Of a DNA stretch of 36,450 nucleotides, positions 6,440 to 36,450 are shown piece by piece. The DNA lies in NCBI GenBank assembly GCA_003693705.1, contig RBZT01000682.1:1-36450 (forward strand). The letters are read 5' to 3'. The notes beneath the pieces were generated by a model. That model was not told the origin of the DNA. It did not search any database and saw only the letters and a list, made by a program, of their open reading frames with translations. The stretch comes from Polymyxa betae (Eukaryota; Endomyxa; Phytomyxea; Plasmodiophorida; Plasmodiophoridae). Positions within the stretch are counted from its first letter, which is position 1. Each line of letters starts with the position of its first letter. Made by a program: the position numbers and the translations under genes.

Positions 6440-8298
6440 CTAACCTGTTGACTGTTTTTGATTAGGACACGTTGTAATGTTATGCCCAGGATTTTTACAG
6501 GCCGAGCAACGTTTGCTGACCCTTTTTGTTCGATTCTCATGCATTCTGGTGATCGCGGAAGAATTAGTGCCAAAGTCTGCAGGGCGGCCAACGCTCATTT
6601 TCGGCCTCATTGGTGGTTGCAATGCTGCAAAAGTCGCAGTCGGTGTTTTGGCGCTAGCGCTTGAGGCTTCTTTTAAGTCTTTTAGGACGTTACTGCACTT
6701 AATCATTGTCAGCCTATAGACATGATCGCTGCTGTTGGAGCCCTGCTCGACAATTTGCTTGCATATCTCGTCCAGTCTGTGATAACGCCTTTGTTGGCTG
6801 CTAGGGCAAACAATTTGTTTGTATATGCCAACTTCAATGCGGGCGGCTTTGTTGACAGAGCCTTGCTCAAGGTTGAATTTAGGGTCTTCAGCATCCTGAC
6901 TCGCGGTGTCATCTGCAAAAATGTTCAAGGATTTCAGCGCTTTCTTTGTCAATGGATGACTCTCCTATCGCCAGCGAGGATGCAGGACAGCTTTACAATA
7001 GAAATCCTTTCCCTCACGACTGTACACTTCACAAATTGCTGCACAAGGTATCAGAGTCGAATAAAAATCTGAGCAGTTACACGAGGCAAATGTTGTTGGA
7101 TCCTGTGGATCATGACAACCAACGCTGTGAGAATTCTCCTGTGGTTTTCTGTGTACAACGGTCCATGAACCATCATCATGTGATTGAGCATCGACATATT
7201 GATGCACCGATTGAGCACGATCCTTCCATTTAGCATCCACGTGCTTGCCATTTTGGATCGCTTGATCAACAGTTCAAGAGCGTTCACATCCTGGCGCTCG
7301 CATATGGAGAAAAAATGCTTAGATGTCTCGAACATGTTAAAGTTTTTCATGTCTTTCTTCAACAGGGGGTCCTGATTAATTCCGGCGTTAATCGATTCCG
7401 TGCGCTATGATGCCACATGACCAGCTGTGAAATGTCGGGACGTTTTTTGTCGCTCAATTTCTCGATGACTTTCAACGCAGCAGGGAATCTGCCGTAAGTT
7501 TGTTTACAATCAACGAATGCCTGATTCAAGCTTTCGGTCGAAGGGAAAACATTGAAAATAAGGGTATTGCAATCTTTCAAGAACTGAGTCCCCATTTCTT
7601 GCGACATTCCGTTTTTGGCAGACATACGTTGTTCTGTAATGCTGGACACACAGAATATGGATGATGTCGCAATCATGCGCAATGACAGCGTATGAAGAAG
7701 CTCCGTCAATCATCAATGTTGCTGCCTTGCGGTCTAACCTGAAAGCCTGAAGCCCACGTATCGCAGCGTCAGAATTTTCTGATTCGGCAAACACAAATCC
7801 CGTCAAAACAGACTTGCCCAAACAGTCAACGTTTGTGGCGACATTTAATTTCAGATCGTAGGGTGTGATCAAGAAAGTACCGTCCAAAAGTGTGAAATCG
7901 CAGTAAGATGATGCGTACTCAGCCATGGACGGGCTCTGCAGCATTACTTCATTAATGCGCATCGATTCATGAATTTTGCAATTAAACGCTCCGCCATTGG
8001 ATGAAAGAGATTTTCCAAATTCCATAAACGGATTGATAGCTTCTGAATCGCTTCCGAACAATGCGGACCTACCATTTTTCACCATTCTTTGTACCAGAGA
8101 AGCAGAAAATTCCCGGTTAGGGAAATGGGCTTCAAGGCAACGCCGAGCTGACGCTCCTCGCATTGAGGGCAGAAGTTCGGTCATATACTTAGATTTTTCT
8201 GGCGTCAGCTCCGTTTCGTAATTTACAAGACGAGTACCGTTCACCACGGAGGGCTGTCGAATTTCGTGGCTGTGCTCCAAGCAACATTTCTCACGCAC
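6440..8298 (-). pseudogene. MULE transposase with SWIM finger and C-terminal zinc knuckle, frameshifted
   Basis: Read across at least four frames on the minus strand, this is a nearly full-length Mutator-like transposase. The order is: an N-terminal region; a DDE core with LLDGTFLITPYDLKLNVAT (first acidic site), a GFVFAESENSDA segment and LMIDGASSYAVIAHDCDI (second acidic site) followed by LCVQHYR; a helical part (QTYGRFPAALKVIEKL); a SWIM-type finger at about 7070-6965 (CNCSDFYSTLIPCAAI ... YSREGKD); and a zinc knuckle CSACKNPGHNITTCP near 6480. The SWIM consensus CxCx(n)CxH has lost its histidine, with alanine in its place. Frameshifts lie near 7680, 7360, 7235 and 6960. MULE transposases cut and paste DNA elements with long terminal inverted repeats; none was located here. 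Confidence 0.82.
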
Positions 8299-20649: not shown

Positions 20650-21988
20650 GTGAGCGCCGTCCACCTCAACAGCAAAAACCAACTGGCGAGACCCGACATT
20701 CAGACGCTCTCCATTTCTCAAATAAAAGTGCCTTCGTCTGTCAGAGAAGCTTTATCATCAGCATGCGCTGGCCATTGGTATGAAGCCATGGCTAACGAAA
20801 TGCAACAAGTAGAGACCTTAAAAACATGGACCCTCGAACAACAACCCCTGTACGAAAAGCAAGCTCGTGCAAATGGGTTTTTAATATCAAGCCGGACCAG
20901 ACCGGAGACGGGTCCATACGTAAATTCAAGACCAGGCTGGTGGTCAAGGGCTTCGCCCAACAGGCCGGAACTGATTATGATGAAACGTTTGCCCCTGTCG
21001 CACATCATCAATCATTCCGCGTTCTGTTCGCACTTGCTGCTCAGCACGGCCTGTCTGTGCACCAAATTGATATAGTTGGTGCTTTTCTCAACAGTGAAAT
21101 TGAAGAAGAAATTTACATGAAACAACCCGACCAGTTTATCGTCACCGGCTGTGATCGAGCAGTTTGCAAGCTCAACAAGGCTCTGTATGGACCGAAGCAA
21201 GTTGGCATGATATTGAACCAGCAACTGGACAACTTCCTGGTCAACGACCTTAAGTTTCGACATGCGGTATCCGACCGATGCATCAACGTTCTCAGACAGC
21301 AAAACAGCATTGTCCTGTTAGGAATCCACTTCGATGATATTCTGCTCGCCTACAACAGTAATGATCTTTGTCAGTCAATAATTCGTCAATTCTCTCTGAA
21401 ATGGGAGGTTCTGACCTTGGGGACCCGTCACGGATCTTGGGACTACACATCTATCGTGACACAACCAATGGCACCATATACAAAAACCCGACGGAGTACA
21501 TTGAAGAGCTCTTCGCAAGGTTCAGAATGACTGATTGCAAACCACTTGGGACACCACACCACCCCGGAGTGTACCTGACTACCTTAATGGGTCCCAGTAC
21601 TGCAGAAGAAAAGATAGAGATGCAATTTGTTCCGTGCGCTGAACTTGTCGGAAGTCTAAATTGGATATCAACTAACACCCGTCCTGTGATAGCCACTTCT
21701 GTTGGGATCCTATGTACATTCATCAGAAATCCAGGACGTCAACATTGGAAAGCAGCCCAAAGGGTTTTACTGTATTTATCCGGAACTAAGAACTGACAAT
21801 CGAGCGAAACATATTGATGTTAAATACCATTATGTCCGAGAGCACATCAGGAAAGGTCAAATTCAAGTTCACTACGTTCCGGCAGAAAGAATGATCGCAG
21901 GTATGTTTACAAAGCCTACGTTAACCTCCAAGTTTAAACTTTGCATGAAGGAGATCGTTAAATCCCAGGATATCAGCTTGAGGGGGCG
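20650..21988 (+). pseudogene. Ty1/copia reverse transcriptase - RNase H remnant
   Basis: Across three plus-strand frames the canonical copia RT appears. SSVREALSSACAGHWYEAMA is followed by SCKWVFNIKPDQTGDG, FKTRLVVKGFAQQAGTDYDE, TFAPVAHHQSFRVLFALA and VHQIDIVGAFLNSEIEEEIY. LNKALYGPKQ comes next, and FDDILLAYNS stands where Y-V-D-D is usual. RILGLHIYRD and VGSLNWISTNTRP lead to VLLYLSGTKN. The frame then jumps directly to HIDVKYHYVREHIRKGQIQ and MIAGMFTKPTLTSKF, so the catalytic core of RNase H is deleted near 21795. It ends in ISLRGRVE, as copia polyproteins usually do, at a purine-rich tract. The 5' half of the element is missing. Confidence 0.88.
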
Positions 21989-34119: not shown

Positions 34120-34590
34120 CAGGGGTTGGAAGAAACAATTCCCTGTAAGGAATAATTCTAATTCCCGACTGAGAATTATTCAGTTTTCAGAAAAGTATGC
34201 ATGGAATAATTCAATCGGTGAATTGATGGAAATGAATAATTCCTGCAGGGAAAAGTTTTTCCTGGAATTATTCCCTATTGCTCGTCATCGTTTTCACTGG
34301 AGTGGAAGAGCTCTGCGTCCCACAGATGGCCTTTCATTTTGAGAAAAATCTGCATCTCGATATTCTCCTGCAGTAGGCTCTTGCGAGTCTCAGTCAAAGC
34401 GAACTTCGAAAAACTGAAAAATCGCTCGCACATATTGCTTGTAGGTCTAATCAATCTACAATCGATATCTTTTGAGGCTCGATCAACTCTCGCTTTCTTG
34501 ACTCTGCGCCAGATAGCTTCCATTGCGTCGACCTCGTCTTCGTTAAACGATCCATCACTGGCAGTATTACTTGATTCAGCTACTGAATTT
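34120..34590 (-). mobile_element. hAT element 3' end with transposase dimerisation domain
   Basis: The terminus at 34120 reads CAGGGGTTGGAAGAAACAAT, a classical hAT inverted-repeat start, preceded by GCCTTAAT as the candidate 8-bp target site. The next 150 bp contain at least five GGAATAATTC/GAATTATTCC subterminal repeats. The transposase C-terminus is coded on the minus strand from about 34577 to the stop at 34275. It includes RPTSNMCERFFSFSKFALTE and EMQIFLKMKGHLWD, the hAT dimerisation domain. The coding sequence breaks off at an AT-rich boundary near 34590, either a splice acceptor (AAATTCAG) or the edge of the viral-like block. It is separate from the hAT remnant at 26 kb. Confidence 0.75.
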
Positions 34591-34693
34591 AAAGATATGG
34601 ATAGAGAAAATATTTATTGTATTAGGGAGTGTAATATTCAATGTTGATAATTAATTTATAATTAAATTTCACAATTTTTTCATACTTATAATA

Positions 34694-35398
34694 ATGAATA
34701 GAAATTTAAACGCAATACCCGTATTTATTAATTCGGCGGAACGTGAAAACGAAACAATTTCGGAGTTTGATATACAAATACCTTCAATCAACCAATCCAA
34801 CGATAATTATAAAATCCTTTTAAACAATTTTAGAATTACCAACGACTTCTATAATATTCATCATTATAATAATGTCATCCAGATAGGAACCACCCAATCA
34901 ATTACCATTCCACCAAATCATTACACATCAACCCAAATTACGGATTATATCAATACAAATAATTCACTGGGTATTACGTGCTCTTATGATACACAAAAAT
35001 ACTCTTTGAATTTCTATAATAACAGTGGAGCAACTTATGCTATAACCATCAATGAAAACCAGAAATTTTTAGGTCTTGAAGCGGGGGCATACGTTTTAAG
35101 AACAACAATGGCATCCAATAAAACGGCAGATTTTAATGGGACAAATTCGATAAAAATATTCATTGATATTCCCTTGATTTCATTGAATACTGCAAACACT
35201 AAAAATAATATTCTGGACGTAATTAACTTTGATAATGATTATGGCACCCAAATTATTTATGAAAACGATTATGACATTACAACAAGTACAAATAACATTA
35301 ATAGGATGAAATTGAGGTTATTAGACGAATTCAATAATCCGTTGCAGTGTAGAACAGACTGGAATGCTAAAATAATATTCTTTACGGGAGACGAATAA
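34694..35398 (+). CDS. Penton-like minor capsid protein
   Basis: A complete ATG-to-TAA frame of 234 codons. Features fit the single-jelly-roll penton (minor capsid) proteins of polinton-like viruses and adintoviruses: an N-terminal VFINSAERE (residues 10-18), corresponding to the VxVDSxxRD opening; a segment YKILLNNFRITNDFYNI (39-55); ITIPPNHYTSTQITDYIN near residues 70-87, matching the IPPGNYT motif; QKFLGLEAG in the middle; and a C-terminal RLLDEFNNPL ... DWNAKIIFF (208-230), matching the D-E-F/Y-G-x-x-L ... dW strand pair. These proteins close the fivefold vertices of the capsid. There is no signal peptide or membrane segment. The frame is intact, unlike most neighbouring transposon genes. 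The family call rests on motif order, not on a search. Confidence 0.7.
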   Translation: MNRNLNAIPVFINSAERENETISEFDIQIPSINQSNDNYKILLNNFRITNDFYNIHHYNNVIQIGTTQSITIPPNHYTSTQITDYINTNNSLGITCSYDTQKYSLNFYNNSGATYAITINENQKFLGLEAGAYVLRTTMASNKTADFNGTNSIKIFIDIPLISLNTANTKNNILDVINFDNDYGTQIIYENDYDITTSTNNINRMKLRLLDEFNNPLQCRTDWNAKIIFFTGDE

Positions 35399-35456
35399 AA
35401 AATAAATTAGTTTCATTTATTTACATATTTATTTAATTTGCTTCTTTATATTAATT

Positions 35457-35612
35457 ATGTCAAGCGATTTAAGGAATTACTCGCCATTAGGATTATCAGT
35501 TTTCAATAACGTTTATGATATTCAATTAAAAATGGAGCAGAATGAACCAAAGGAGGTTTCATTTCAGCACGAAGTACAAAAACAACCTTTACAATGGATT
35601 AAAGGAATATAA
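35457..35612 (+). CDS. Small protein, 51 aa, in the viral-like block
   Basis: ATG at 35457 to TAA at 35610-35612, with normal composition (MSSDLRNYSPLGLSVFNNVY at the N-terminus, ending QPLQWIKGI). No membrane segment or domain was recognised. It sits 58 bp after the penton-like gene and 50 bp before the next ATG, on the same strand, with AT-rich gaps. Its AT-rich codon use is like the neighbours and unlike the host-side remnants. The compact spacing is the main argument that it is real. A small virion or accessory protein is possible but unproven. Confidence 0.5.
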   Translation: MSSDLRNYSPLGLSVFNNVYDIQLKMEQNEPKEVSFQHEVQKQPLQWIKGI

Positions 35613-35662
35613 ATAAATCATTATTAAAATTCAACGAACCAGCATTGACAGAATTACAAACG

Positions 35663-36202
35663 ATGACTACGATGGAACAAGAAAATTCAAGAAGAAATGA
35701 CGGAACCCCTATTTATCTTGGATATAAGATTTTTGAAGCGTATAAAAATAATGGCAAAATACCAAAACAAATCAAGGATGCACCAATTACTACATTACAA
35801 ATTGAAAAACAAGTTAAACACAAAACCGAGCACCGAAAAATAGAAGTAAAGAAAGCACAAATACAAAATTCTAATTCTCAAACCGACCCACAAATTCAAT
35901 TAAATAAACCAGTAAAGAATTTATCAAGGAAGGAAATGGAAAAGGTAATAAAGGAAAATAATAATTCAGTCCCAGAACAGCAACCAAGATTAACAAGAAG
36001 ACAAGAAAAACAAAATGATAGATTGAATGAATTAACTGCTGGATTAATTCAATTTGATAATCCACCTAATTATGAAGCAAATGGTCTCGGTAGAGCAATG
36101 ACGAGGGACGAGCAACGAACGCATACAGAAAGAGTGAAACAGGGTTTATCCCCGAAAAGAAAAAGAGGACGAAAACCGCAACCAAGACAACCACTCGATT
36201 AA
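35663..36202 (+). CDS. Basic Lys/Gln/Asn-rich protein, 179 aa, in the viral-like block
   Basis: The likely start is ATG 35663 (MTTMEQENSRRNDGTPIYLG); the frame is open a few codons upstream but without ATG. A short structured-looking N-terminus (PIYLGYKIFEAYKNNGKIPK) precedes a long charged, low-complexity region rich in K, Q, N and E. Conserved-looking stretches follow (RLTRRQEKQNDRLNELTAG, LGRAMTRDEQRTHTERV), and the end is strongly basic, PKRKRGRKPQPRQP, resembling a nuclear localisation signal or AT-hook. A DNA- or capsid-interior-binding virion protein is one possibility. No family is recognised. It lies between the penton-like gene and the ATPase, a position consistent with a morphogenesis operon-like cluster. 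Confidence 0.6.
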   Translation: MTTMEQENSRRNDGTPIYLGYKIFEAYKNNGKIPKQIKDAPITTLQIEKQVKHKTEHRKIEVKKAQIQNSNSQTDPQIQLNKPVKNLSRKEMEKVIKENNNSVPEQQPRLTRRQEKQNDRLNELTAGLIQFDNPPNYEANGLGRAMTRDEQRTHTERVKQGLSPKRKRGRKPQPRQPLD

Positions 36203-36229
36203 AACTAAAAACTTGGTTTATAGTAATAA

Positions 36230-36450
36230 ATGCCAAGAAATAAACCAGTTGATTAACTATACGGAATTTATCCGTAAGGCAACCACAAATAATAATTCAT
36301 AAAAATCTCCCAGCAATCCCTTTTAGTATAATGTCAGTGGCAAAATCCGAAAGTGGTAAAACAAATTTTAATGTCAATATAATCCAAAAATGTGCCAAAA
36401 CATTTAAGGATAATGTTTATATTTTCGAGAAAACGCCCTGTTTAACTGTT
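36230..36450 (+). CDS. P-loop (packaging-type) ATPase, 5' part; runs off the window
   Basis: After ATG 36230 (MPRNKPVD, then TAA) a second frame, open from 36253, reads RQPQIIIHKNLPAIPFSIM, then SVAKSESGKTNFNVNII. HKNLPxxPFSIM followed by a Walker A-like xxSESGKTNF and a hydrophobic strand (DNVYIFEKTP) is the usual opening of A32/FtsK-HerA-type genome-packaging ATPases in polinton-like viruses. The Walker A glycine before the four variable residues is alanine here. The change of frame near 36254 suggests a 1-base indel; alternatively the true start is ATG 36331 just before the P-loop, which would lack the conserved N-terminal strand. Walker B and the sensor motifs lie outside the window. Confidence 0.55.

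What the first reader, a model, noticed from the sequence alone, without database searches (positions are those of the whole stretch)
34591..36450. Edge of an AT-rich polinton-like viral element with a capsid-packaging gene cluster
Directly visible: a sharp composition change, compact same-strand genes, an intact 234-codon frame with VFINS, IPPxxYT and LLDEFxxPL...DW motifs, and a downstream P-loop SGKT after HKNLPxxPFSIM. Established: penton and A32-like ATPase are the conserved morphogenesis genes of polintons, adintoviruses, polinton-like viruses and virophages. Inference: an integrated virus-like element, possibly a little-described lineage, sits in this transposon-rich region. The two proteins between penton and ATPase match nothing I know.
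Basis: partly seen in the sequence, partly recalled or inferred. Interest (0 to 1): 0.9.

Follow-up and report, generated by a model that had tools for sequence, protein, structure and literature searches.

The report
Fossil polinton-like virus, penton and ATPase
The last 1.9 kb of this eukaryotic contig is a piece of a small integrated DNA virus carrying its corner (penton) capsid gene and the start of its DNA-packaging motor gene, one of several such partly decayed pieces in the same genome and a new member of a kind of virus that is already known.

The parts
34591..34693 (.). AT-rich left border and leader of the element; whether this is the true end or a truncation is unresolved
   Evidence: GC 44% in 34501-34600, 16% in 34601-34700
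34694..35398 (+). Penton (vertex capsid) protein, 234 aa, intact frame
35457..35612 (+). Small same-strand frame, 51 aa from ATG; may or may not be the first part of the next gene
   Evidence: no Pfam family for its first 50 residues
35603..36202 (+). Same-strand open frame, 199 codons (first TTG 35645, first ATG 35663), lysine- and glutamine-rich with a basic C-terminus; unknown
   Evidence: codon-position GC 45/34/22%; no second copy found in the assembly; best Pfam E 0.23
36253..36450 (+). 5' part of an A32-like packaging ATPase, cut by the contig end; no ATG ahead of the HKNLP motif, P-loop AKSESGKT
   Evidence: Pox_A32 E 0.0029, below cut-off; C268 copy E 3.6e-10, 44% over 63 aa; C208 ATPase 34% over 47 aa

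Best explanation
The segment is one end of an integrated, partly decayed polinton-like virus. Its penton would form pentamers that close the twelve vertices of an icosahedral capsid, and its A32-type ATPase would pump the viral DNA into it; the two small frames between are probably lineage-specific virion or accessory proteins. The virus entered the nuclear genome and is now a fossil or near-fossil. The same genome holds pieces with at least two penton lineages (window type and C208 type), and AT-rich primase-helicase pieces that probably served replication. Shown here: penton fold, A32 similarity, several copies, some of them on contigs with cellular genes, and a stop or frame break in 5 of 7 pieces. 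Inferred: that the replication genes and the candidate capsid fragments belong to the same virus kind, and the capsid and packaging roles.
For: Penton. ATPase: Pox_A32 over cut-off for C208 (E 2.6e-7) and for its environmental relative P0002 (2.9e-9); window piece E 0.0029 and 44% identical to a C268 copy. Cluster: C208 holds candidate capsid fragment, two ORFs, ATPase and penton within about 3.4 kb. Replication: Prim-Pol 6.3e-8, PriCT_2 2.7e-7 and DUF5906 7.5e-6 (just below cut-off) on C131; DUF5906 3.4e-19 on C227. Integration: AT-rich island in mid-contig on C131 with host-like composition on both sides; cellular domains on 4 of 5 contigs scanned: PhoLip_ATPase_N and FAM76 on C208, C2H2 on C139, PWI and RRM on C268, BTB on C227, none in the one C115 frame scanned. 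Past constraint: dN/dS 0.18 (window vs C139 penton, 81 codons), 0.13 (C115 vs C208 capsid candidate, 83 codons) and 0.23 (the next ORF, 74 codons), all with dS above 1.
Against: No major capsid gene, integrase, protease or terminal repeat was identified on the window element; the contig ends. The candidate capsid fragments match nothing in Pfam, PHROGs or NCBIfam (C208, C115) or the PDB, and their structure prediction failed (pLDDT 30). No relative was confirmed in viral contigs in 6 of 6 answered scans. The penton model is of moderate confidence (pLDDT 66.8; the other four models 41.8-55.1). The primase-helicase pieces are not linked to a penton or ATPase, and DUF5906 also rings over its cut-off in 3 of 14 bacterial and archaeal control genomes, as Pox_A32 does in 2 of 14, so those families alone do not mark a virus of this kind.
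Confidence: 0.8

Rival explanations
1. The segment is a shard of a giant virus (Nucleocytoviricota) insertion; these too carry a P1-type penton and an A32 ATPase (recalled).
Against: Foldseek ranks six mavirus penton chains first in the PDB (E 2.7e-8 to 1.5e-7, against 7.2e-4 for PBCV-1); the second-ranked viral model, the first that bears a name, is from Tetraselmis viridis virus S1. Penton and ATPase start lie within 1.6 kb here, and the C208 cluster spans about 3.4 kb. The AT-rich tracts seen are roughly 0.3-4 kb; apart from A32, PolB and helicase families no giant-virus gene was searched for.
Confidence: 0.08
2. The segment is a virophage (mavirus- or Sputnik-like) rather than a polinton-like virus.
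For: The mavirus penton is the best Foldseek match in the PDB.
Against: BFVD ranks a Tetraselmis viridis virus S1 protein (5.4e-12) above any row named as a virophage; several rows there carry no name. No virophage protease or capsid protein was searched for.
Confidence: 0.08
3. The penton gene is a domesticated cellular gene kept by the host.
For: The penton frame is intact while the neighbouring ATPase looks damaged.
Against: It lies in a viral-type cluster of unusual base composition; two further penton copies sit in the same genome; low dN/dS is between old lineages and fits selection in free viruses as well.
Confidence: 0.04

Closest known systems
Polinton-like viruses integrated in fungi (Spizellomyces punctatus; Allomyces macrogynus), PMC7805220, passages read
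   Same: Integrated small DNA virus; the paper gives MCP, minor capsid protein and packaging ATPase as core genes and reports MCP, ATPase and DNA helicase for Allomyces
   Different: No sequence of these elements was at hand, so kinship was not tested; chitinase, found in 52% of the S. punctatus group, was not searched for here; the copies here are fragments
Tetraselmis viridis virus S1 (a TVS-type polinton-like virus, recalled)
   Same: Its protein M4QZG2 is the second-ranked viral structure match and the first named one (E 5.4e-12, TM 0.63 of query)
   Different: 16% identity; the rest of its gene set was not compared
Mavirus virophage penton (PDB 6g41, 6g42)
   Same: Penton fold, Foldseek E 2.7e-8
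   Different: 12-14% identity; virophage protease and capsid genes not searched for
PBCV-1 chain P1v1 (PDB 8h2i_bG)
   Different: About twice as long (504-530 residues); giant-virus setting (recalled)

Membership tests
Polinton-like virus | minor capsid (penton) protein | tested here: met
   window 34694-35398
Polinton-like virus | A32-type DNA-packaging ATPase | tested here: met
   C208: Pox_A32 over cut-off. Window: 5' part only, Pox_A32 E 0.0029 below cut-off, kin to C268 and C208 copies
[quoted passage not shown]
   candidate C-terminal fragments on C208 and C115 only; no family, PDB or fold support
Polinton-like virus | primase-helicase replication gene | tested here: inconclusive
   Prim-Pol, PriCT_2 and DUF5906 on C131 and C227, not linked to the window element; DUF5906 also occurs in control genomes
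Polinton-like virus | terminal inverted repeats | not testable with these tools
   the contig ends inside the element
Polinton-like virus | tyrosine recombinase or rve integrase | not tested
   no search made
Polinton/Maverick and adintovirus | protein-primed PolB | tested here: not met
   PF03175 over the whole assembly: one sub-threshold match, E 0.01, 18 bits on C353, in a stretch of host-like composition. The assembly is fragmented, so a missing gene is possible
Virophage | cysteine protease and virophage-type capsid protein | not tested
   no search made for these
Nucleocytoviricota | P1/DUF5901-type penton | tested here: inconclusive
   fold and weak profile similarity; Pfam lists no DUF5901 match for the window protein itself

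The most novel reading that the evidence does not exclude
The window element, C139 and P0001 define a separate family-level lineage of polinton-like viruses, coexisting in one nuclear genome with a second lineage (C208 type) whose close relatives occur in environmental data.
Probability: 0.35. Interest if true: 0.55.

Novelty: new member of a known kind. Interest (0 to 1): 0.42.

Why it matters
DNA viruses of fungi and fungus-like eukaryotes are little known. A genome with fossils of at least two penton lineages points to repeated invasion by small DNA viruses, gives pentons and ATPases to search environmental data with, and marks a host group in which relatives could be sought.

Tried and rejected
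Pfam hits of the penton to DUF1093 (E 0.0082) and DUF4926 (0.23) are below cut-off and were dismissed. PHROGs gave no family for the window penton and only weak ones for the C208 penton (0.079, DNA primase) and the 185-aa frame (0.04, unknown); P0002 matched 'terminase large subunit' at 8.5e-8, which fits a packaging ATPase. NCBIfam gave nothing for the penton, the 199-codon frame, the C208 ORF or the capsid candidate. A PDB search with the ATPase profile gave 25 hits, best E 0.046, which I take as chance. Structure of the capsid candidate failed. Six viral-contig scans confirmed nothing; they look for a few short exact words and may miss distant kin. tblastn against phages: no match for the C208 ATPase or P0004. 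The C227 helicase hits 49 phage records, all under 60% identity; of the 20 listed, 10 are named primase, 7 integrase, 1 hypothetical and 2 carry no annotation; it also matches a PDB chain named Primase at 2.9e-13. This shows a widespread family, not kinship. Passages of PMC11071308 and PMC11244446 gave nothing on polinton-like viruses in fungi; PMC10120064 (passages) excluded fungi from its survey; PMC10675990 (passages) links an algal lineage to the TVS and S. punctatus groups by capsid gene. Host: a chitin synthase N-domain occurs (PF08407), but the frame around it scores highest with PDB 7wjm (349 bits; an oomycete enzyme by recall) and lower with 7xs6 (321) and 7stl (302; yeast enzymes by recall), so fungus versus oomycete-like is not settled; C2H2 arrays lean to fungi or other opisthokonts (recalled). 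A paper search on assembly size and contig number found nothing. The left neighbour 34278-34523(-) looks to me like a hAT transposase end, but Pfam does not support it.

Full report
What was checked. The window is the entire contig C469 (36,450 bp) of an unnamed 24.4-Mb, 541-contig assembly. Its composition is about 40-50% GC up to about 34,600, then drops to 30%. The last 1,860 bp have 30.0% GC; the lowest of 3,274 same-size windows to the left has 41.3%. The 234-codon frame at 34694-35398 is not a chance frame of AT-rich DNA: 0 of 1000 dinucleotide shuffles of the segment reach it, the longest being 156.

The terminal frame is the start of an A32-type ATPase. Residues from 36253-36450 give Pox_A32 at E 0.0029, below the cut-off but the only family listed. 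The same assembly holds a decayed copy on C268, 44% identical over 63 aa, with a TGA inside. The C208 ATPase, which passes the Pox_A32 cut-off (E 2.6e-7), is 34% identical over 47 aa and 80-82% identical to two environmental proteins of 236-237 aa; C208's own frame stops after 161 aa. A search of the assembly with the Pox_A32 family itself listed only C208 over the cut-off and a sub-threshold C237 match (E 0.16), not the window or C268; it also rang in 4 of 14 control genomes, 2 over the cut-off. In the window the ATPase frame has no ATG before the HKNLP motif and an altered P-loop, so this copy may be broken; I only describe this.

The element cannot be followed to the right, because the contig ends and its last 300 bp matched no other contig. 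Instead I looked for relatives elsewhere in the assembly. With the window, seven contigs carry pieces: C469 (penton, two small frames, ATPase start); C139 (penton fragment at the contig start, 56% identical to the window, with a TAG); C208 (about 78.0-81.6 kb: candidate capsid fragment with a frame break, two ORFs, ATPase on the minus strand, intact 242-aa penton); C115 (candidate capsid fragment with a frame break and the next ORF, 71% DNA identity to C208 over 891 bp); C268 (ATPase fragment); C227 (SF3-type helicase, DUF5906 E 3.4e-19, open frame at the contig start); C131 (island of about 22.65-24.7 kb with Prim-Pol 6.3e-8, PriCT_2 2.7e-7 and DUF5906 7.5e-6, on successive short frames). Counts are lower bounds by the tool's own note. 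Five of the seven pieces lie within about 0.3 kb of a contig end (C469, C139, C208, C115, C227); C268 lies within 1 kb, and C131 is internal. Five of seven (C139, C208, C115, C268, C131) show a stop or frame break; the window's ATPase is doubtful and C227 shows none. DUF5906 rings over its cut-off in 3 of 14 control genomes, so the helicase alone is not proof of a virus of this kind.

Integration. The C131 island has about 39-47% GC within 1 kb on either side. I scanned eight frames on five of the contigs: cellular domains occur on C208 (P4-ATPase N-domain, FAM76), C139 (C2H2 fingers), C268 (RRM, PWI) and C227 (BTB), none in the one C115 frame; C131's flanks were not scanned. Free virus or contamination is therefore unlikely for most pieces. 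For the window itself the evidence is that the left 34.6 kb contains a copia reverse transcriptase (RVT_2 1e-44) and a sub-threshold MULE match.

Two lineages. The window and C208 pentons are 25-31% identical. In a tree of 14 pentons (P0012-P0014 left out) the window, P0001 and C139 form one group (support 100/100) on a stem of 2.63 changes per column; it is the only starred one of 11 inner branches. The group is drawn next to P0004 and P0005, inside the C208-type rows, at an open fork (82/99), so its place is unsure and a clean split from the C208 type is not shown by the tree. dN is far below dS for window versus C139 (0.33 vs 1.79, 81 codons), for C115 versus C208 in the capsid candidate (0.18 vs 1.35, 83 codons) and in the next ORF (0.24 vs 1.03, 74 codons); window versus C208 gave no dS (saturated). 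The proteins were under constraint, most simply while they were viruses, and the copies come from distinct viruses rather than recent duplication.

How it most likely works. By analogy with solved pentons, the 234-aa protein would form the capsid's five-fold vertices; the ATPase would pump DNA into the capsid. These roles are inferred. The two frames between are unexplained: the larger has a coding-like codon-position pattern, no second copy found in the assembly and no Pfam family better than E 0.23.

What it is called. Of the three core genes of polinton-like viruses (MCP, minor capsid protein and packaging ATPase; PMC7805220, passages read), two are met and MCP is inconclusive: the C208/C115 fragments are called candidate capsid from their place and appearance alone, and neither families, PDB nor folding supports it. 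PolB, which defines polintons, was not found over cut-off. Virophage and giant-virus readings are not excluded. The same paper reports such elements in the fungi Spizellomyces punctatus and Allomyces macrogynus and in oomycetes, so the kind is known; I could not test whether this element belongs to its S. punctatus group. Eight paper searches listed no paper that, by title and start of abstract, describes this element; the library holds open-licence papers only, and most listed papers were not opened.

Host. It is not named. A chitin synthase is present, which fits fungi or oomycetes; I do not settle which.

Odds. On rechecking I lowered the main reading from 0.85 to 0.80, because the control genomes rang for two of the families, and the novel case from 0.40 to 0.35, because the tree does not place the window group outside the C208 type; the odds of the virus-class rivals were set so that the whole adds up to no more than one.

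Noticed in passing
L012:140-223 (C115) and L026:5481-5563 (C131, reverse strand): An 86-bp repeat, 84% identical, lies close beside the viral fragment on both contigs; it may be a small transposon or an old junction. 71 N lie next to the C131 copy.
   Followed up: partly
window 20826-21527: Copia-type reverse transcriptase, RVT_2 E 1e-44.
   Followed up: no
window 7513-8298 (-): MULE transposase-like frame, PF10551 E 9e-4, below cut-off.
   Followed up: no
window 34278-34523 (-): Frame next to the viral border that resembles a hAT transposase C-terminus by recall; Pfam does not support it.
   Followed up: partly
L005:9386-9613: Small frame after the C208 penton, with cysteines and weak zinc-ribbon similarity (E 0.019, below cut-off).
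   Followed up: no
L026:7300-7450 (-): Upstream of the C131 primase, an AT-rich stretch seems to encode a short cysteine-containing protein on the minus strand (read by eye).
   Followed up: no
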